Assembly: GCA_020091685.1 (NCBI GenBank)
Contig: CM034607.1
Location: forward strand, 28,606,645 to 28,670,644
Direction of reading: 5' to 3'
DNA from: Lutjanus erythropterus
Taxonomy: Eukaryota > Chordata > Actinopteri > Lutjaniformes > Lutjanidae
DNA: 64,000 bases
Of the stretch, positions 17,001 through 46,260 are shown one piece after another. Both the position numbers and the translations under genes were made by a program. The notes below the pieces were generated by a model. The model was not told where the DNA came from. It did no database searches and worked only from the letters and a program-made list of their open reading frames with translations. Position 1 is the stretch's first letter. Every line of letters starts with the position of its first letter.

Positions 17001-18566
17001 CCTTCTTCAGACAGGACAGTTTCCACAGAAATGTCACTTGGTTTGAACTCCGCAGCAGCTCCTGAAATAACAGTCACACGATGTCAAAACTAAAATATGA
17101 CACCAGACAACAGATTTAAAAGCAAATGTTGATCCAATATTCGAGTCACACTCCTGGCCGGCAGCCACTGGTCTCGGCTTGTCAGTACCTGTCACCTCCT
17201 CGGAGAGACTCGGGACGTCGCCCAAGCTCTCGGTGCCGTCGTCGACTGGCCCGACATTCTCAACAGCAGCCTCCTGCGGAGTGAGAGGAGAGATCAGGCT
17301 TCAGCACTGACAGCACCCACATCAGTAACACCGACCTTGACATTTACAGCACGCTAATACAGGCATGCAAGCACACGCACCGAAGCTTTGGTTAACAAAC
17401 AACAATATTTCTTTTCATCTATCACTGTGATTAAATCATGGGTTTTTGGCTTTTTTTCTTGTGACACGCCATTTTGTTGACTTAATCCAATATAAAGAAG
17501 GCAGTGAGTCTGATTTCACTCAGTTTTCTTTTCTGAATTACTGCATAATAGCAGCTAAAATCACTGAACATCCACTATCAAATATGATTATCATATAATT
17601 CTCCATTCCTAAAATTATATATACTCAGCTGTCACATTTAGTTCACCTTCACTGATATAAATAACGGTTGAAGAAAAGTATGTTCTACTATCTCTCAGTA
17701 GAACAGAACACAATTCAGCATCAGCTCATACTACAGAAATACCATTACCATCACATTAAACAACACGTTTCAACAAATACTGTACACTACAGCCTTGTGA
17801 CGGAAGGATTTTCTGCAGGACTGCTGTCTTAAACTGCATTAGTTCTTATTAGGTGTGCCTAATAATCTGGAAAATAAGTGTATATTTATATCTGAGGAGG
17901 ATTTTGTGGTTATTATAATATAAGGCTTTTGTCCTTAATGCTCCAATTCAACACAGACATGCAGAACAGCAGTGATGGAAGAAGTATTTTAGGTATTTTA
18001 CTTAAACAAAAGTACTAATACCACAATGAGAAAATACTCCAGACCAAATAAAAGCCATGCATTCAAAATCTTATTTAATTAAAAGTATGCAAGTATTCTC
18101 AGAAAACTTTAAAGTATTAAAAGTAAAAGTGCTCATTCTGCAGTAGAAAGGTATCTGTCAGTGTTTTACTAGTATGAATGATATGTTTGGATTATTATCA
18201 CTGCTGCATTAATGTGTATGTTGCATTTTACTGCTGTAGATGTTTAAAGTTGGTCTGTTGTCGGTTAGTTTAATCTGCAGCAATGCATCATATTCTAGGA
18301 GGATATCATATGTTAGCAGCGTCATTCACCACCATTTTATCATGATGGGAAACTTTGAATTCTAAGTCCAGATGTGCCACATTTCAAATGATCCTGTAAT
18401 CATGAGCAAGTGAGACAACCATCCTCTAAATGATTTCCAGGCACACGGGGCTCGCAGCAGAGTTTCCTGATCATGTGTTTCTGTGTTGTCTCACCTCGGG
18501 GGAGAGGAGGGTCCAGCTGTTGGTGGAGGAGCCAGTGCTGCCTGTGCTGTTGCTGTTGTCAGACAT
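3979..18566 (-). CDS. pbxip1: pbxip1: PBX homeobox-interacting protein 1 (HPIP), nine coding exons
   Basis: Coding exons, in transcript order, are 18566-18495, 17273-17189, 17061-16994, 15576-14913, 11833-11597, 7968-7931, 6548-6453, 6292-6112 and 5048-3979. All junctions are GT-AG and every phase joins, giving 836 residues (human PBXIP1 is about 731). Visible features: SWTLLSPE near residue 17; a long acidic Ser/Pro/Glu region (76-330); FDDGLRRR just after 310; one membrane segment (about 359-376); coiled coils (about 389-542); a Trp/Lys/Glu repeat region (592-667); a His/Gln tract (675-704); and a C-terminal domain starting GCSSVDDCAAREGL at 725. This domain order is that of PBXIP1. Known role: the mammalian protein binds PBX homeodomain proteins and oestrogen receptors and associates with the cytoskeleton. 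The paralogue CCPG1 is an ER-phagy receptor. The adjacent cks1b favours PBXIP1 over CCPG1. Teleosts may carry two copies, so the a/b suffix is left open. Confidence 0.9.
4378..4467 (-). repeat. His/Gln-coding tract in pbxip1 exon 9
   Basis: The plus strand is a (ggt/gat/gtt)-rich near-repeat. On the coding strand it gives about thirty residues dominated by His and Gln, including seven consecutive His. Human PBXIP1 has a His run too, but at its extreme C-terminus. Here the run precedes the conserved C-terminal domain. Confidence 0.85.
5049..6111 (-). other. pbxip1 intron 8
   Basis: AT-rich intron. It holds a (TTTG)n stretch near 5261-5280 and no other structure that I recognise. The small plus-strand frames at 5371-5742 and 5868-6328 have no domain. 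Confidence 0.6.
6112..6292 (-). CDS. pbxip1: pbxip1 coding exon 8, coiled coil
   Basis: Heptad-rich sequence (KEELDAALKAV, then ENENAKLKEELASLPELK, then LESLRARVTELSQLE) before donor gtacga. The acceptor is a tandem: cag at 6293 or 6287, six nt apart, both in frame, so isoforms with or without Ser-Gln are possible. Confidence 0.85.
6453..6548 (-). CDS. pbxip1: pbxip1 coding exon 7, start of coiled coil
   Basis: Thirty-two codons containing MKELLDKLTQENQQITQLEA, closely matching the LLDKLAKENQ motif at the start of the coiled coil in PBXIP1/CCPG1 proteins. Acceptor caatccag, donor gtcagt. Phase zero on both sides. Confidence 0.88.
6549..7930 (-). other. pbxip1 intron 6
   Basis: AT-rich, apparently unique intronic sequence. 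I see no coding segment, and the flanking exon phases need none. Confidence 0.5.
7931..7968 (-). CDS. pbxip1: pbxip1 coding exon 6 (38 nt micro-exon)
   Basis: Acceptor ctctgacag and donor gtctgt enclose FDGYDHDGEQSQ. Its phase (two bases in, zero out) is exactly what exons 5 and 7 require, which is the main support for so short an exon. It is the segment just C-terminal to the membrane helix. Confidence 0.65.
8773..8836. repeat. GAGAA/GAGAG purine microsatellite
   Basis: A continuous plus-strand polypurine run of gagaa and gagag pentamers. Such mirror-symmetric purine tracts can form triplex DNA and are often length-polymorphic. Confidence 0.9.
9479..9918. mobile_element. Possible MITE in pbxip1 intron 5
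   Basis: The left end gctgcgttcaggacggtgtt and the right end, read in reverse complement as agctacgttccagacagctt, match at most positions. The interior (ggaagtcggagttttccc) resembles common teleost dispersed repeats. No exact target duplication is seen. Confidence 0.35.
10069..10108. repeat. Short ACAAATTAAT decamer repeat
   Basis: About four consecutive copies of a ten-base unit, nearly perfect. Confidence 0.8.
11597..11833 (-). CDS. pbxip1: pbxip1 coding exon 5, membrane-segment exon
   Basis: Seventy-eight codons. FDDGLRRRNF corresponds to the MEGLRRRRG motif of human PBXIP1. An acidic run (SDEEDEEEE) and a Lys/Glu stretch precede WFSLNKCIVGALILLFFGS, a clear single hydrophobic helix matching SLNMCLLGALVLL in the human protein. 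Acceptor cctcccccag, donor gtgagt. Confidence 0.9.
11834..14912 (-). other. pbxip1 intron 4
   Basis: An intron that is mostly unremarkable apart from the 399-bp MITE at 13762-14160. No exon-like segment with matching phase was found. Confidence 0.5.
13762..14160. mobile_element. hAT-like MITE (CAGGGTTC termini) in pbxip1 intron 4
   Basis: It begins cagggttccagcctcc and ends agcacccgtaagaacactg, whose reverse complement begins cagtgttctt, so the ends are CAG(G/T)GTTC inverted termini. Both arms carry repeated ttcaagcactttcaag and cttgaaaatattt motifs. I recognise this as a widespread teleost MITE type. The flanking bases do not show a clean 8-bp duplication. Confidence 0.6.
14913..15576 (-). 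CDS. pbxip1: pbxip1 coding exon 4, large acidic exon
   Basis: It encodes 221 residues rich in Pro, Glu, Ser and Thr, beginning VCQETSPESS after acceptor gatttctag and ending in a Glu-rich run before gtacag. A block of eight consecutive Glu is coded by a GAG/GAA repeat (about 14989-15013), a likely length polymorphism. It is predicted disordered and lies on the cytosolic side if the topology resembles CCPG1. Little of it is alignable by eye with mammals except the composition. Confidence 0.8.
15577..16993 (-). other. pbxip1 intron 3
   Basis: An intron with two A-rich low-complexity patches (16148-16168, 16224-16244) and two similar segments containing gacttcccaactggg-type sequence (about 16262 and 16727). 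No coding signal. Confidence 0.5.
16994..17061 (-). CDS. pbxip1: pbxip1 coding exon 3
   Basis: Acceptor ttatttcag, donor gttagt. A short 68-nt exon encoding AAAEFKPSDISVETVLSEEG followed by HQ, acidic like its neighbours. The phase fits exons 2 and 4 exactly. Confidence 0.75.
17189..17273 (-). CDS. pbxip1: pbxip1 coding exon 2
   Basis: Flanked by acceptor ccgcag and donor gtactg. It encodes 28 residues (EAAVENVGPVDDG through LSEEVT) plus one base that completes Gly with exon 3. An alternative donor 7 nt earlier (GAG|GTGACA) would break the phase, so it is not used in this model. Confidence 0.75.
17274..18494 (-). other. pbxip1 intron 1
   Basis: An intron whose left half appears unique and whose right half holds a dispersed repeat (17970-18330). 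Confidence 0.5.
17970..18330. repeat. Dispersed AGTACT/TTAAAAGTA repeat, partial copy
   Basis: It begins agtgatggaagaagtatttt, then acttaaacaaaagtactaat and accacaatgagaaaatactc, and reaches aatgcatcatattct. This is the first half of a widespread percomorph repeat. The second half is missing. Related copies lie at 20373-21065, 53690-53835 and 61322-62131. Confidence 0.55.
18495..18566 (-). CDS. pbxip1: pbxip1 coding exon 1 (start)
   Basis: Twenty-four codons, beginning at an ATG with G at -3 and ending CCCGAG before GTGAGA. The peptide is Ser/Asn/Thr-rich and ends NSWTLLSPE, resembling the first exon of CCPG1 (Ser/Asp-rich, then GWTVI). The upstream in-frame ATG at 18677 is less likely: a good acceptor (cctgcag, ending at 18573) sits 6 nt before the chosen ATG, implying a separate 5' UTR exon. 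Confidence 0.8.
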
Positions 18567-19367
18567 CGCCCTCTGCAGGCTCAACGTGGCACAGCACGGT
18601 GCAGATTCAGCTTTATGATATTCTGCAGACGACGACAGAAACAACGTGTCTTCATTGAACATGCCTGATGCACACACTGCACGTCATGTGGGAGTTAACG
18701 GAATCATGCAGATGTAATAATCTGACTGCAACTTGTTTGGTAGTGTAGATAAACATAAGCTAACACCAAAATTAAGAGTATGCACAATTCTTAACATAAA
18801 AATACACGTAAAATGACAAACTGTGCGTTATTTTCTGCAGGATAATGTTGATAAATGTGTAAATAGTGGTCTAAGAGGACACAACTGTGCAATTACACTG
18901 CAGTTTGGGACCTAATTCACCGTACGCACGGGATAAAGACCAGATTGTCGTTGATACGAGTTATGTAACGGTGTGGTGGCATCCATAATATACTGCTGCG
19001 CAGTTAAACAAAGGCTTTAGTCACTAGAAACAGGACTCTCCCGATTGCATTCACCACCGCTGCTATTTCCAGCCAACCATTCATTCAGATCCATGCATCC
19101 ACTCAATCTGTGTGGCTGTTAAATTACCAAAAATGGTCAAACCCCAGACACGAGCAGTTCATTGATCCTGAAAAGAGCAAACAAATGGTTTATACTCACT
19201 TGTCGACAACACTGTGCTCGCTAAGCCTCTGTTTTGTGCGTTTAAGAAACAAATTTCAGGGGCTATGGTTGTTGTAGCAACCAAATTAAAGGTTCATTCA
19301 TGATGGTAAACAAAGAATGGTAGGCTGAACGGTCCAAAGTAGAAGAGAACCCCGGACCCACAATTGA

Positions 19368-19377
19368 TCTCGCGAGA
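19368..19377. promoter_or_regulatory. TCTCGCGAGA palindrome, copy 1
   Basis: A perfect ten-base palindrome, the CGCG core-promoter element found in vertebrate CpG-island promoters and bound by BANP when unmethylated. It lies inside the TIR-bounded element. Function here is inferred. Confidence 0.55.
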
Positions 19378-19519
19378 GTGAACATTTTACTCGACATATA
19401 ATCATTCCCTAACCCTAAACAGGAGGTTTCTGTCTCTAAATCGACCTAGATGTTAATCAGACCATTGTCACATGTTAAAACATAATTATTTTGTACAGGG
19501 TACGCAATAAAGTAACAAA

Positions 19520-19529
19520 TCTCGCGAGA
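19520..19529. promoter_or_regulatory. TCTCGCGAGA palindrome, copy 2
   Basis: A second perfect copy, 152 bp from the first and near the opposite end of the same element. In the relative at 43.5 kb the two corresponding sites are decayed (tctcattgga and tctcgcaaga). Confidence 0.55.
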
Positions 19530-19569
19530 GTTTCCCAAATTTTAGGTTCCCTTCTAGACACAATCCCAT

Positions 19570-19940
19570 TCCCACTCTTCCGCGTTCTCACTCAGGCCCA
19601 ACTGTGCGCCAGCGCTTCAAACACCTGCTCCGCTCTACAAAATTAAACGCAAAGAAAAAGGTTTATTTACCCCACTTGCTCACACCTCAGTCGATCGTTG
19701 TTTTTTTCCTTCAAAACGTTTTATTGTTTTTTTAGTATGAACAACGCTCCTCTCTTCCCGTGAACTTGGGAACTTTGGGAATTCCAAGCTGCGTCACGTC
19801 AACCAACGCGCCGTCCGTCCAATGGGATTTCAGCAAAGGCTACGCAGCTCCCGCCCCCGAACAAACGCGGGGCCAATCACATAAAAGTGTCGTGTCAGGC
19901 AAACGACGCACATCCCAGCGTGATTGACGCGCGCAGGTGA
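19570..19940 (-). promoter_or_regulatory. CpG-rich block, likely pbxip1 promoter region
   Basis: This stretch is clearly richer in CG dinucleotides than its surroundings (cgcgttctc, gcgccagcgc, acgcgccgtccgtcc, acgacgcac, gacgcgcgc). It has CCAAT at 19819 and 19873, a GC box cccgccccc near 19850 and cgtcacgtcaa near 19794. It is about 1 kb upstream of the pbxip1 start codon, which fits a first non-coding exon near 19.1-19.8 kb. The exact start site cannot be seen. Confidence 0.45.
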
Positions 19941-20004
19941 CAGAGACGCTGGGTTTTAATAATACAACTTCATGTGTGAACCGAAGCCTGAGGATTCATG
20001 CGTG

Positions 20005-20032
20005 CACACACACACATATATATATATACACA
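20005..20032. repeat. (CA)n(TA)n microsatellite
   Basis: A short compound dinucleotide repeat. Confidence 0.85.
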
Positions 20033-20372
20033 GCAGGGAGAGTCTGGCTGGACCAGCCGCTCACTGACACGTCGGCAGAGTTATATTTGAACTGCGGGAC
20101 TTACCAGAGCGGACAGCCCCTTCACTCCAGTTGCTCCAGTGTGGACATTAGTTTCATCATCTGTCTCCTTTCTTCTAAAATTAAAATGTTTTCTGAGAGG
20201 CACATTTACATTCACACGTCTGCATATCTGAAATGAGAAAACACACAAACATACACAATTAAAGAGAACTGGAATTCACATTTCTCCACATACATGCAGT
20301 ACCAGTGTAAAGCTGCTCCTAAATGACAGTAAATGTCTTATATCATTTATGTATATTATTACTGACGCACAG

Positions 20373-36300: not shown

Positions 36301-38580
36301 AAGAGTCTCAGCCGACTGAAGGATCTCTGACTAATGGTTTGAATCTTCGACTATCAGGGGGCAGCACTAATGCAGGGTAATGCAAGGTTTTCTTAATTAC
36401 ATTTAGATTACAGAGCATTTACCCAGCTATGGAGGAGAGCCTTACCAGAAATATTTTTCTGTATTCATAACATATAATAATAAATAATTCTTTAAAGAAT
36501 AAATTTTGCTGTTGAGGCGTTCAGAGGGTCTCAGTGTCAGCCAGGGTGTCTCATACCCCCTGAGATCCACCGTATTTTTCCGCATGAATTAAATGAATAT
36601 AATATACAATGAAGGAAGATCAACAGTTTAAGTCTGTGGCTCTCAAGCCTCCTCTGTCATGTTCCCCTATGGAAATTAAGAATGAATTCCCTGTCTTGTA
36701 TAACAATTTAATTTTTATAACACTACTGGGGAAACTGACAAAGCGTGCAAAGTTGAACTTCTGAAAAAACATTATTTTGATCAGTAGCTTCCGGGCCTCC
36801 CTAAGGGTCTTAAGATTATCAACGAGAAATTAAAAAATTGCAACACAAAGTTAAGTCTTTTTTTTCTCCTGTCTTTGCTCTCTGGTGAAATACAGCAGAC
36901 TGTTACCTTTAAAGTCAAACTAAACACTGTGAGAGGGGACAGTCCTCACCTCCGGGTCTTTGTTTGAGCTCTCTGACATACGTGTACGTATACAACCTGT
37001 GTCAAGGTTCGTTTAATTTCCACTGATCCTGAAACATTTGTCTTTCGATGCGTATTCCTCAGCAGCTTCTGTTGTGAAAAATGAGAAATGCAACTTAAAG
37101 TTTTTACAAACAGAAGACACGAACGCTCAGAAGGACACCTTGCTCTCGAGCCTTAAAAAAAAAAAGTACTATCAGTTTTGTTTAATGGCGTCTCATTTTT
37201 CTTCCTGTCAAAAATCTGTCCGTGTTGTTCTTTACATGTTGTTCTGCCACCTGCATAAATCTTGCTAACCCGGATCTTGATAGCCTTTCAGCATCTGTGC
37301 TGTGGTTACTGTTCATGAATCATTCAACTTAAGATGCAATCCAAATTCTCCCGGTGTTATTTTTGTAAACCACTGGGTTATTTACCCAAAGGTTTGGTTG
37401 TTAACTGTTCAAATCTATTTTAGCTGCTTTTAAAGCTCGTACTTGTCACTTTTTGTTACTGACTGGCTTAGAAATATTGTGTCCTTTGCCATTCAGAATT
37501 GTTTTGTGCAATACAAAAGGTTTTAAAGAAGTTTTAAAGGTGCTATATACAATATTTACCTTAGGAGTTTGCTGTTGAGCACCAGCGTCTCAGACCAAAA
37601 CAAATGTATGCTTCATTTTTTTCAATAAAGGTGTCATCTAGGCAGCGCTGATCAAATACAGATCAAGATGTTACTGCATTGTCTATTTTTACTTAAATGT
37701 TTTCAGAAACACATTTTAGTGACTTTTTAGTTGTAAGATGAGACAGAGTGTAAACTCCAGCCCCTTACGAAGGTAGAAATTTTAACCCAAACAACAATCT
37801 TTCCGACCCTAACGAGGCACAAGGAAGAAACAATACGTACAAATCTCTTGACAGTTTCACAAATCTAGAGTTCCCTTCTACACACGGACATTTCCAACAG
37901 AGACTCCCGAAACTTAGATCAAACTGTCAAACTAGGCAGTGTTACCTCATGCGTCCTTCTCACCTAAATTAGTTTCAGAAACCGTCTTGGCTCAACAAAG
38001 AAGACTAAATAACAACACGATCACAGGGAATGTGACATCATTCTCTGCTTACGAAGGCTTTATAATATGGTATGATATAATATGGTAAAATAACCCATTG
38101 CTACTGAGTAAAGTTGACCCAAACTTAGCTTTATAACCCAGTTATTTGGGGATGCTGAAGTGACATAAGCTGGCTGGCGGTTGGTTTATCAACGTCACTT
38201 CACCGTCGATTCATTTGTCTGTGTTTTGTTGTTTACACAGTTTAACGTTTTGCAGAGGTTTTTAAAAATGGTGGTTGCAGGTACTGTGCTGGCTCATGTG
38301 TTAAACAATCAACATACACTTAAGTCACTCAAGGCTCCTCTTCCGCTGAAAGAGGACCTACTCTTAGAACAACTACAGTTGTTCCCAGTTCTTGCAGTGT
38401 GGACATAATAAAAAGGGGCAAACAATACTGCAACCCTGAGTATCTGCTCATACTAATGCCAATCTGATACCGTCCTGCTCTTAAACAACTCAGCTGTTAA
38501 TAACAGACAACAAATGTTTGTATGGATGCACTTTGCTTAACCTAGCCATCTAAAAAACATCAGATTCAAACTGTGAAGCA
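33345..38580. other. Intergenic DNA
   Basis: Five kilobases without a convincing exon. It contains a fragment of the AATCGATTA repeat (34970-35190) and a stretch at 37745-37900 whose right end (agttcccttctacacac) resembles the TIR of the element at 19334-19561. The frames in this stretch are short and without domains. Confidence 0.4.
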
Positions 38581-42630: not shown

Positions 42631-43486
42631 TTCCAGGGACATTAATTTACCCCCCAAGAAGTCCCTGCATGGGGTCTTTGGAGGTGGGGCTTGCAGTGCT
42701 GGACATTTCTGATTGGTTGAATACTCACATTTTAGTTCAGTCAACATTTTTAAAAATCTAGAGCTGCAAACCATTTTGTTTTTTGTTCACTGTGCCTCGA
42801 CACATCAACATGGAGCTACAGAAGGAAGCATAAGATGATGAAGTCTTTGTATAACTGTAGTATAGACAAATCCAGTGAAGTACTGGAAGTTGATAAGCTG
42901 CCATTACTGCAGTGGTGTCTCCCTACAGTATGAACGCAAATGACTGCGAGCCATCATAAGAAGTTTACATTTCAATACTTTTACACTTGGTTTTTATGTA
43001 ACATTACTTTTGACAACAATGTCTAGCAAGTCGGGAAGAACCTGTGCAGTTCAGCTGCTCCAACAGTCATGTCAAACTTCAACTTTGGACAGAAATGGAC
43101 TGCATGAAGAGTGCTGCTGTCTGAGAGCAGAGACTCTACAGAGATCCACTGAGTGTACAGAGGACCATGATGTGTCTTAGTGAATCAAAAATATTGACAG
43201 ACATGAACTTTTTCCATGAGAATCTTGAACACCTGATGAAAAATGTGAATTTATATATATATTTTTAATATATATTACACAGAACTTCATCACTTAAATG
43301 TGGCAGAGGTGGTCTGTATTTTGTCTTCTCCATTATCCATTTCTGACTATTGTCACAACCATCTAACTACTGTGTAAAATTTTATGAAAATTAATACCAC
43401 CATCTTAAAAGGTACCTTCATCAGTTACTGAGAGCCATCAGTCCAATTATCTGTGGTGTCACTGTTAGCAAGACTCAGCAGACATG
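42631..43486. other. Intergenic DNA
   Basis: No feature recognised. Confidence 0.4.
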
Positions 43487-43598
43487 GTGTCTAGAGGAGA
43501 ACCCCAGATCCACAAGATCTCATTGGAGTGAACTTTTTGTCTGAAACCATGAAAAATCTCGCAAGAGTCTTGCAAATTTTGGGTTCCCTTCTAGACAC
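43487..43598. mobile_element. Short MITE with GTGTCTAGA termini
   Basis: It begins gtgtctagaggagaacccc and ends gggttcccttctagacac, reverse complements apart from one or two bases. The inner sequence (agatctcattggagtgaac, then aaaaatctcgcaagagt) aligns with the TCTCGCGAGA-bearing arms of 19334-19561, with the centre deleted. Confidence 0.6.
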
Positions 43599-44639
43599 AA
43601 CCAGCAGACACCAAGAGCGATGGACATGCCACCACAGAAATAGTGGCAAGTTGGCAAGATGGCAGGACACACAAAGTGGTCTCTGGATTCGCCTGTAGTC
43701 ACATTTTAAAAAATGCAAATGCAAATCAACATCATTTCATACATCAGCAGAGTAATTTGCTTAACCTTCTTGGGTCTTAAGACCATGATGGAAATGCAGA
43801 CAATAACTAGCTGAAGGAACCTTTTATTCGTTTGAAAAGTAGTTCCTGGGACTGAAAGTTCTGGGTTATTTGAGTGGAAACATGGGTTATGGCCCTGACC
43901 ATGGCTCTGAAAATTTTGTACATCCATGGCACTGAAATAATAGACAGACTTGAACCTACTGTGACTTTTTCTTTGAGTATTCTTCTGTCATTTTTTATCC
44001 AGGATCTATAATATTCTAACTTCCCAACTAACTTTTCAGAACCAAAAGAGTTTTTCTTGAATCAGTTTGTAGTTGTACAAAATGTACCAGGTCCACCCCC
44101 GCTGTTAAAAATTAACAAATCGCCAACTGCTCATAACCAAAGGTGAGGGTTGGAATCTAAATTGACTGGTAACTTGTAAGCTATCGGCTGGTTCACACCA
44201 CACACTTGAGAAGCGTGTGTGCGTGGCGTTACCTGCTGGTTTTCATTTCAGAGCCAGTATTGTGTCAGGCACGGCTGCAGCCACGCTTCATCTAGAGATT
44301 CAGTGCCTCGCCTATTTTCTCGGCAAAAATAGACATTGAAAATGATCTGTTGAGAGTCATACTGACATTATGTCAGCAACAGGACACCTCTCACTACAGT
44401 TTCATTGTCTACGTCTGTACAATGTCTCACAGACATGAAAAAAATCTGGTGTTTCTTTTCTTTCTCTCCTTTCTCTTCTCTCTCCATCCCTCCCCCTCTG
44501 AATGAGGAGAAAAATCACTGATTGCCTTCAGAAAACAGCTATTTTCTTCTTTTCATACTCTTCTGAAAACTCTATGTAGAAAGACGGGGCTTTCAGCAAC
44601 AGAATCGCAGAGCAGCAGAATCGCAGCCTGTGTGGACAC
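43599..44639. other. Intergenic DNA
   Basis: No gene. A somewhat CpG-richer patch at 44190-44310 (gaagcgtgtgtgcgtggcg) is unexplained. Confidence 0.35.
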
Positions 44640-45150: not shown

Positions 45151-46260
45151 CAGTAACTGAAATAGCTGAATGAATCTCTCTGCACTTCAAGCTGAATGGA
45201 GAACACTTACAAACCTTGTATTGGTTTATGAAGGCTGTCACAGTGTTACCCTTTCTTTGCATTGAACTGCTTCCAATTACTATTTTTACCACAGTAGTTA
45301 TTATTATCATGTAATTGCTACTGTGTGTGCACATGAGTGAGTCAGTGTGTGCATACGTGATCACTGGAACTACAGCTCGTCTGCAGATAATCTTAAATAC
45401 TACTTCAGCCCAGTATTTTTTTGTGCAGATTCATGACTGTATCCTGAAGGACCTTGACCTGAACTTGTGAATTTCTTCAAACTGCACAAATGTTCACTTG
45501 GACTCAAAGATGAACTGATTTAGTTTTGGTGGTCAAAGCTCACAGTGACCTCACAAGCACATTTTTGGCCATAACTCAAGATTTCATCCTCACTACAGAC
45601 ATCACTACTGGACAGACGTGGATGTAAACTGTAACTTGACTGGTTGGTGGAGATGAACTACTGTGAGGCTGTAATTCTATTTTTTTTGTTTTATTTGTCC
45701 ATTGACAGCTGACTTCTCACTCTTCTTAACTAGGGGCTGCAAGTGATCAACGACTGCTTGAGTTTGAAATCTTGTTTCAGCTTATATGGAGCTCATCTTA
45801 ATGTTGGAGGAACTTTACAAATCTCTGCTGGTTGTATCTGGCAATTGTGGTGGCATTGCAGTAGGTGCTTCACCATCTGTTGCACTCTACTGAGTAACAT
45901 ATAAATCGGCTGGTTTAACTCAGGTGTGGTGTCTTCTAGTGTGTAATTGAATATTATTGATTTTTTCTGTCGTTTATGGGCAGCACAAGCTGTGATGTCA
46001 ACATATTATCACCGTATGAAATTTATACAGGAAATATGTTGGTAAACAGTAATCATTTTCATCCAAACAAGATCTTTCTCTCTCTCTAATCAAGTATTTT
46101 TTGTCCCTAAACCTAAGCAGATCTTAACCACAGCATTGTCGCAGTTTAAAAACATATATAGTTTGTATAATGTGCACAATGAAGAAAAAGTTTTTACGGT
46201 TCCCATCTGTAGACGAGGACCTAAATATTAATTCTTGTCAATTGCTGGTTTCACTGCCAG
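45151..46260. other. Intergenic DNA
   Basis: AT-rich with no recognised feature. Confidence 0.4.

What the first reader, a model, noticed from the sequence alone, without database searches (positions are those of the whole stretch)
19334..19561. A transposon-like element carries two perfect TCTCGCGAGA promoter palindromes next to the pbxip1 promoter
Seen: two exact TCTCGCGAGA decamers (19368, 19520) lie in the arms of an element whose ends (agtagaagagaacccc / ggttcccttctagacac) are inverted and recur at 43487-43598, where both decamers are decayed. Known: this decamer is a strong core-promoter motif of CpG-island genes and is the BANP binding site. Inference: the element family may disperse ready-made BANP sites, and the promoter-proximal copy may have been kept for pbxip1 transcription while the desert copy decayed.
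Basis: partly seen in the sequence, partly recalled or inferred. Interest (0 to 1): 0.7.

Follow-up and report, generated by a model that had tools for sequence, protein, structure and literature searches.

The report
Fish mini-transposon spreading BANP promoter motifs
A short jumping-DNA family in this fish genome carries the BANP switch sequence TCTCGCGAGA in both of its ends and supplies a large share of the genome's perfect copies; in a sample most copies have lost it by mutation, but this one, at the edge of a probable gene promoter, has kept both.

Summary
Two exact TCTCGCGAGA decamers sit in the arms of a transposon-like element at 19331-19565, and a 43.5-kb relative has both decayed. 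The window has four copies, not two. The element belongs to a large non-autonomous DNA-transposon (MITE) family in a 938-Mb assembly: consensus 245 bp, inverted repeats (TIRs) of 46-47 bp, 9-bp target-site duplication. The palindrome is the inner end of both TIRs, so it was probably in the family's ancestor. The genome has 2938 TCTCGCGAGA sites (reversed-pattern control 438). Of these, 551 pairs lie at the element's arm spacing (chance about 0.2), so up to 1102 sites are in copies with both arms intact. In an interior-selected sample, 14 of 78 arms (10 of 39 copies) keep a decamer; loss is mainly CpG-to-TG/CA. Keepers lie in CpG-undepleted flanks (mean o/e 0.67 versus 0.33) and are not younger. 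The pbxip1-side copy fits: it abuts a CpG-rich block upstream of the first coding exon and keeps 4 of 4 decamer CpGs but 0 of 5 alignable others. BANP binding, promoter activity and selection are inferred. Passive protection by an unmethylated region remains a strong rival.

The parts
19331..19565 (+). MITE copy (nearly full length; interior identity to consensus 0.80; gaps of 9 and 1 bp against the consensus, so decamer spacing is 152 versus 162)
   Evidence: nhmmer with the family model 208 bits, E 2e-62, envelope 19331-19565 (this copy was one of the model's sequences); single-sequence search of the genome scored 40 copies of 1130 first-look candidates; interior identity; gaps
19331..19377 (+). 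left TIR, with the decamer as its inner 10 bp
   Evidence: consensus TIR comparison; alignment of this copy to the consensus
19368..19377 (.). perfect TCTCGCGAGA, left arm
19520..19529 (.). perfect TCTCGCGAGA, right arm; with its flank it reads AAATCTCG, the in-vitro optimum reported for the BANP BEN domain
   Evidence: PMC10206803 passages
19520..19565 (-). right TIR
19600..20100 (.). CpG-rich block, 300-bp CpG o/e up to 1.25, presumed promoter/first exon of the minus-strand gene; the element abuts its downstream edge
   Evidence: profile; minus-strand sequence
18495..18622 (-). presumed first coding exon of the pbxip1-like gene (acceptor-like ctgcag at 18628-18623, ATG at 18566, donor gag|gtgaga); suggests an untranslated first exon upstream, so the element would lie in intron 1 or the promoter
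   Evidence: read by eye and ORF; no transcript evidence
37776..37886 (+). internally deleted copy; right decamer decayed to TCTCTTGACA
   Evidence: nhmmer E 6e-14 for 37815-37886; weak interior match further left
43484..43602 (+). internally deleted copy, both decamers decayed; 9-bp direct repeat cagcagaca at 43476-43484 and 43602-43610 (offset by 2 bp from the consensus left end)
46028..46217 (+). copy with decayed TIRs, interior 69% identical to the 19.3-kb copy
   Evidence: nhmmer E 2e-25 for 46048-46189

Best explanation
The feature is an old copy of a non-autonomous cut-and-paste transposon (MITE) with 9-bp target-site duplications, whose TIRs (46-47 bp) end inward in TCTCGCGAGA (SHOWN for the consensus). 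The family is a major genome-wide source of this motif (SHOWN for DNA sites). In most sampled copies CpG decay erased the motif; copies in CpG-undepleted stretches keep it more often (SHOWN as association in 39 interior-selected copies). At 19.3 kb the element sits at the downstream edge of the CpG-rich block of a minus-strand, pbxip1-like gene and keeps both decamers although its other alignable consensus CpGs have mutated. INFERRED: the unmethylated decamers bind Banp and add to promoter output there, probably in both directions, and this use or the unmethylated state preserved them.
For: Family and TIRs: (exact 21-bp TIR end 418 times, reversed control 0). TSD: of 70 copies, 35 had both ends readable; 7 of these 35 have flanks matching at 7 or more of 9 positions, versus 0.25% of mismatched-flank controls; length 9 stands out among 5-12. 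Decamers: 2938 genome-wide, reversed control 438; 551 pairs 148-168 bp apart, reversed control 0, chance 0.19. Context: copies with at least one intact decamer 10 of 39, flank o/e 0.67 versus 0.33, MWU p 0.004, interior identity 0.85 versus 0.88, i.e. not younger; the query-biased set points the same way (31 of 39 intact, 0.74 versus 0.48, p 0.037). Flank o/e 0.6 or more in 6 of 10 versus 1 of 29, Fisher p 0.0004; background 5.3% of 320 tiles. Beyond regional protection: with one intact arm as anchor in those 10 copies, the other arm's decamer CpGs are kept 14 of 20 versus 28 of 70 other CpGs, stratified permutation p 0.0135, Fisher p 0.023. This copy: 4 of 4 decamer CpGs kept, 0 of 5 alignable other consensus CpGs. 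Motif function: PMC6192621, PMC9363121, PMC10206803 passages.
Against: No binding, methylation, accessibility or transcript data. The window copy was chosen because its decamers are intact, so its 4-of-4 versus 0-of-5 contrast is post hoc. Decamer CpGs in the interior-selected set are kept only moderately more than other CpGs: 49 of 120 versus 59 of 231 ungapped, p 0.005; with gaps counted as lost 49 of 156 versus 59 of 273, p 0.03. The consensus was made from query-biased copies. With the 9 copies that also topped the biased search removed, the context test weakens to p 0.052 (4 intact of 30); in those 9 alone it shows nothing (0.63 versus 0.53, p 0.38). 3 of 5 'other CpG' losses of this copy are CpG transitions, so the place was not always unmethylated. 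Exon and promoter positions are read by eye.
Confidence: 0.62

Rival explanations
1. Passive survival: the copy landed in an already unmethylated CpG-island shore, so its CpGs, decamers included, escaped deamination. The decamers do nothing for the gene.
For: Retention tracks flanking CpG o/e; other CpGs are also better kept in retaining copies (0.42 versus 0.18).
Against: In retaining copies decamer CpGs outlast other CpGs of the same copy (14 of 20 versus 28 of 70), and the window copy lost 5 of 5 alignable other CpGs. Small numbers.
Confidence: 0.35
2. The palindrome belongs to the transposon itself: a transposase- or host-factor-binding site, or the promoter of the autonomous partner, as TIR promoters are in maize Mu (recalled). 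Host use is incidental.
For: 10 of 10 identical in both consensus TIRs while the adjacent 14-15 bp partly differ between arms; decamer non-CpG bases kept 371 of 411 versus 1892 of 2285 elsewhere in the TIR (counts, p 8e-5; gapped cells left out).
Against: No autonomous partner or transposase found, but the transposase search did not complete. Does not explain the link with CpG-rich flanks. Not exclusive of the best explanation.
Confidence: 0.3
3. Intact decamers only mark younger copies.
For: Both-arm retention is correlated: 4 both, 4 left only, 2 right only, 29 none (gaps counted as lost; Fisher p 0.011).
Against: Retaining copies are slightly more diverged in the interior (0.85 versus 0.88 identity, p 0.02).
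Confidence: 0.05

Closest known systems
CGCG element / BANP motif of CpG-island promoters
   Same: Identical decamer TCTCGCGAGA; two copies gave about 4-fold more reporter output than one, and activity is bidirectional (PMC6192621 passages); a Banp motif near the TSS of 31 of 81 down-regulated genes in zebrafish banp mutants (PMC9363121 passages).
   Different: Here the motif is delivered inside the TIRs of a transposon, and activity is untested.
Human THE1B/THE1C elements with BANP/ZBTB33 motifs
   Same: Transposable elements in which active copies are enriched for this CpG motif and whose activity is methylation-sensitive (PMC10474299 passages).
   Different: THE1 is an LTR-type element (recalled), human, with the motif enriched in active copies; here a fish DNA transposon with the motif built into both TIRs.
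Mutator-like (MULE) MITEs
   Same: 9-bp target-site duplication (9 bp for maize Mu: abstract of PMC2774946 in the listing), inverted repeats, short body.
   Different: No MULE transposase tied to it; superfamily rests on TSD length alone, and other superfamilies with 8-9-bp TSDs (e.g. Merlin, recalled) are not excluded.

Membership tests
MITE (non-autonomous DNA transposon) | terminal inverted repeats shared by many copies | tested here: met
   46-47-bp consensus TIRs; 418 exact 21-bp TIR ends, control 0
MITE (non-autonomous DNA transposon) | fixed-length target-site duplication | tested here: met
   9 bp; 7 of 35 readable copies at 75% or more identity versus 0.25% in controls
MITE (non-autonomous DNA transposon) | short, without coding capacity for a transposase | tested here: met
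   consensus 245 bp; judged from length, no ORF search was run on the consensus
Mutator-like superfamily | about 9-bp TSD | tested here: met
Mutator-like superfamily | mobilised by a MULE-type transposase with matching TIRs | not tested
   search for PF10551 in this genome did not complete
BANP-responsive promoter element | exact motif TCTCGCGAGA | tested here: met
BANP-responsive promoter element | close to a CpG-island transcription start | tested here: inconclusive
   abuts a CpG-rich block, but the start site is not mapped
BANP-responsive promoter element | unmethylated, Banp-bound and active | not testable with these tools
   no functional genomics data; a search for BEN-domain genes in this genome did not complete

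The most novel reading that the evidence does not exclude
The transposon family exploits Banp: decamers in both TIRs recruit it, open chromatin and keep the insertion unmethylated, so that new insertions seed small unmethylated, bidirectional promoter islands across the genome and preserve both their own motifs and nearby CpGs. Fish CpG-island promoters would then be partly built by one MITE family.
Probability: 0.15. Interest if true: 0.88.

Novelty: new variant of a known kind. Interest (0 to 1): 0.62.

Why it matters
BANP sites activate essential metabolic genes in mammalian cells and cell-cycle genes in zebrafish (PMC10206803 and PMC9363121 passages). A transposon that planted hundreds of perfect, paired sites gives natural replicates of one insertion in different chromatin contexts. 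That makes testable whether a transcription-factor site can keep DNA unmethylated and create a promoter, or merely survives where methylation is absent.

Tried and rejected
1) The first genome sample (whole element as query) showed 26 of 38 left and 22 of 33 right decamers intact among 39 copies and looked like strong selection. It is biased because the query contains both decamers: non-CpG sites where the query matches the consensus are kept more (0.844 versus 0.741). An interior-only query gave 14 of 78 arms intact. I use the latter for retention. A first version of the two-arm test (22 of 28 versus 41 of 98, p 0.001) counted copies with both arms intact twice; one search replaces it.

2) An age explanation for intact copies was tested and not supported.

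3) No exact match in IMG/VR viral contigs for two patterns from the right arm. No paper held prints any of six strings from the element's ends or decamer context. Searches for TCTCGCGAGA alone and with transposable elements, BANP with transposable elements, teleost MITEs, fish Mutator MITEs, and BANP with transposon/fish listed nothing whose title or abstract start describes this family; two searches listed 12 of 19 and 10 of 546 papers, so they are not exhaustive. The main BANP paper (Nature 2021) is not held.

4) Pfam search of 5 ORFs of the pbxip1-like gene and a PDB search of 1 gave no informative match. Two-sequence MAFFT of the 19.3- and 43.5-kb copies misplaced the left arm; BLAST and nhmmer were used instead. 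L020 and L024 were dropped from the consensus model because their left ends did not align; L020 was kept in all retention counts, L024 in those of the biased set.

5) Planned but did not complete: counting CpG-decay states of TIR arms by pattern (last try), the MULE transposase search (last try) and the BEN-domain search.

Full report
OBSERVATION. Both exact TCTCGCGAGA decamers are present at 19368 and 19520 and are the only exact ones in the window. A Markov-1 model from 200 kb of this genome predicts 0.07 per Mb. The element's ends recur at 43484-43602, where both decamers are mutated. All four lie on the + strand.

WHAT IT IS. The window lies in a 937.6-Mb assembly (contig C17). Using the element as query, 40 places (itself included) were scored out of 1130 first-look candidates. 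Using only its interior, 40 of 151. Using the interior of another copy, 40 of 1435. These are lower bounds. Aligning 20 of the 39 other copies with this one, two of the 20 then dropped, gave a 245-bp consensus. Its ends are inverted repeats of 46-47 bp: the outer 22 bp are identical, the next 14-15 bp partly differ, and the inner 10 bp are TCTCGCGAGA in both. The exact outer 21-mer occurs 418 times, its reversed control 0 times. Of 70 copies, 35 had both ends readable; their flank-to-flank identity rises at length 9 (mean 0.438 versus 0.270 in mismatched-flank controls; 0.325 versus 0.250 at length 8). L018 and L027 have perfect 9-bp duplications. So it is a MITE with a 9-bp target-site duplication. 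Mutator-like is the natural superfamily guess, but the transposase search did not complete.

THE MOTIF GENOME-WIDE. TCTCGCGAGA occurs 2938 times, the reversed string 438 times. Genome-wide, 551 pairs lie 148-168 bp apart (consensus spacing 162; chance expectation 0.19). Up to 1102 of 2938 perfect sites (37.5%) are therefore in copies with both arms intact, taking the spacing as the sign of the element; the printed letters of 13 of the 551 places look like it by eye. Copies with one intact arm add to this. From the interior-selected ratio (4 both, 6 single) I extrapolate roughly two thirds of all sites; that figure is an inference from small numbers.

DECAY AND RETENTION. The whole-element search is biased towards intact decamers. 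In the interior-selected set (39 copies: 30 new already fetched), decamers are intact in 14 of 78 arms, counting gapped arms as lost; 4 copies keep both, 6 keep one, 29 none. Of 120 ungapped decamer CpGs, 49 are kept and 54 are TG/CA. The typical fate is thus that expected of methylated CpG. Retaining copies have CpG-undepleted flanks: o/e 0.67 versus 0.33 (p 0.004); o/e of 0.6 or more in 6 of 10 versus 1 of 29, against 5.3% of 320 background tiles. Restricting to the 30 newly fetched copies gives the same direction with p 0.052; the 9 others alone give p 0.38. They are not younger. Within the 10 retaining copies the other arm's decamer CpGs are kept 14 of 20 versus 28 of 70 other CpGs (permutation p 0.0135), which hints at site-specific retention beyond regional protection. 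Against all 39 copies the excess is modest (49 of 120 versus 59 of 231).

THE COPY AT 19.3 KB. It keeps 4 of 4 decamer CpGs and 0 of 5 alignable other consensus CpGs (2 more are gapped). Its flanks have CpG o/e 0.92. It abuts a CpG-rich block at 19600-20100. On the minus strand an exon with the ATG at 18566 is preceded by an acceptor-like site at 18628-18623 (read by eye), so an untranslated exon upstream is likely. The element would then lie in intron 1 or in the promoter. The right decamer is preceded by AAA, giving AAATCTCG, the optimum found for the BANP BEN domain in vitro (PMC10206803 passages).

MECHANISM. Shown: a transposon family with the decamer in both consensus TIRs, wide dispersal, common CpG decay in the sample, and retention associated with CpG-rich surroundings. 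Inferred: unmethylated decamers bind Banp and contribute to promoter output. Supporting literature, read as passages only: methyl-sensitive bidirectional activity, with two copies stronger than one (PMC6192621); Banp-motif targets in zebrafish (PMC9363121); methylated distal BANP-motif sites (n = 13 in ES cells) gain accessibility when methylation is lost (PMC9729108). The last point gives the simplest combined picture: silent while methylated in deserts, usable near unmethylated promoters.

COMPARISON AND NOVELTY. Transposable elements carrying BANP/ZBTB33 motifs have a precedent in human THE1 (PMC10474299 passages). A DNA transposon whose two TIRs each end in the perfect palindrome, and which accounts for a large share of a genome's perfect sites, was not found in my literature searches, which cover only open-licence PMC papers and of which I saw listings.

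Noticed in passing
L043:5276-5285 (C15 near 10005280): The only perfect decamer in 200 kb of unselected sequence lies in CpG-rich sequence with a second near-perfect site (TCTCGCGGGA) 3 bp further on, next to CCGATT-type repeats. It matches the family model only weakly (E 0.001), so it may be another mobile element or promoter with this motif.
   Followed up: no
G000:C1:7203063 and C1:7205049, with an exact TIR end at C1:7204970-7204990: Two decamers about 2 kb apart and an exact outer TIR end nearby suggest a longer relative of the MITE, perhaps with coding sequence.
   Followed up: no
window 19331-46217: Four family copies in 27 kb, all in the same orientation, whereas 200 kb of unselected sequence gave only 4 partial hits at E 0.01 or better.
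   Followed up: no
C2:28102789-28103175: Two decamer pairs of element spacing lie within 390 bp, a possible tandem or nested double insertion with four perfect decamers.
   Followed up: no
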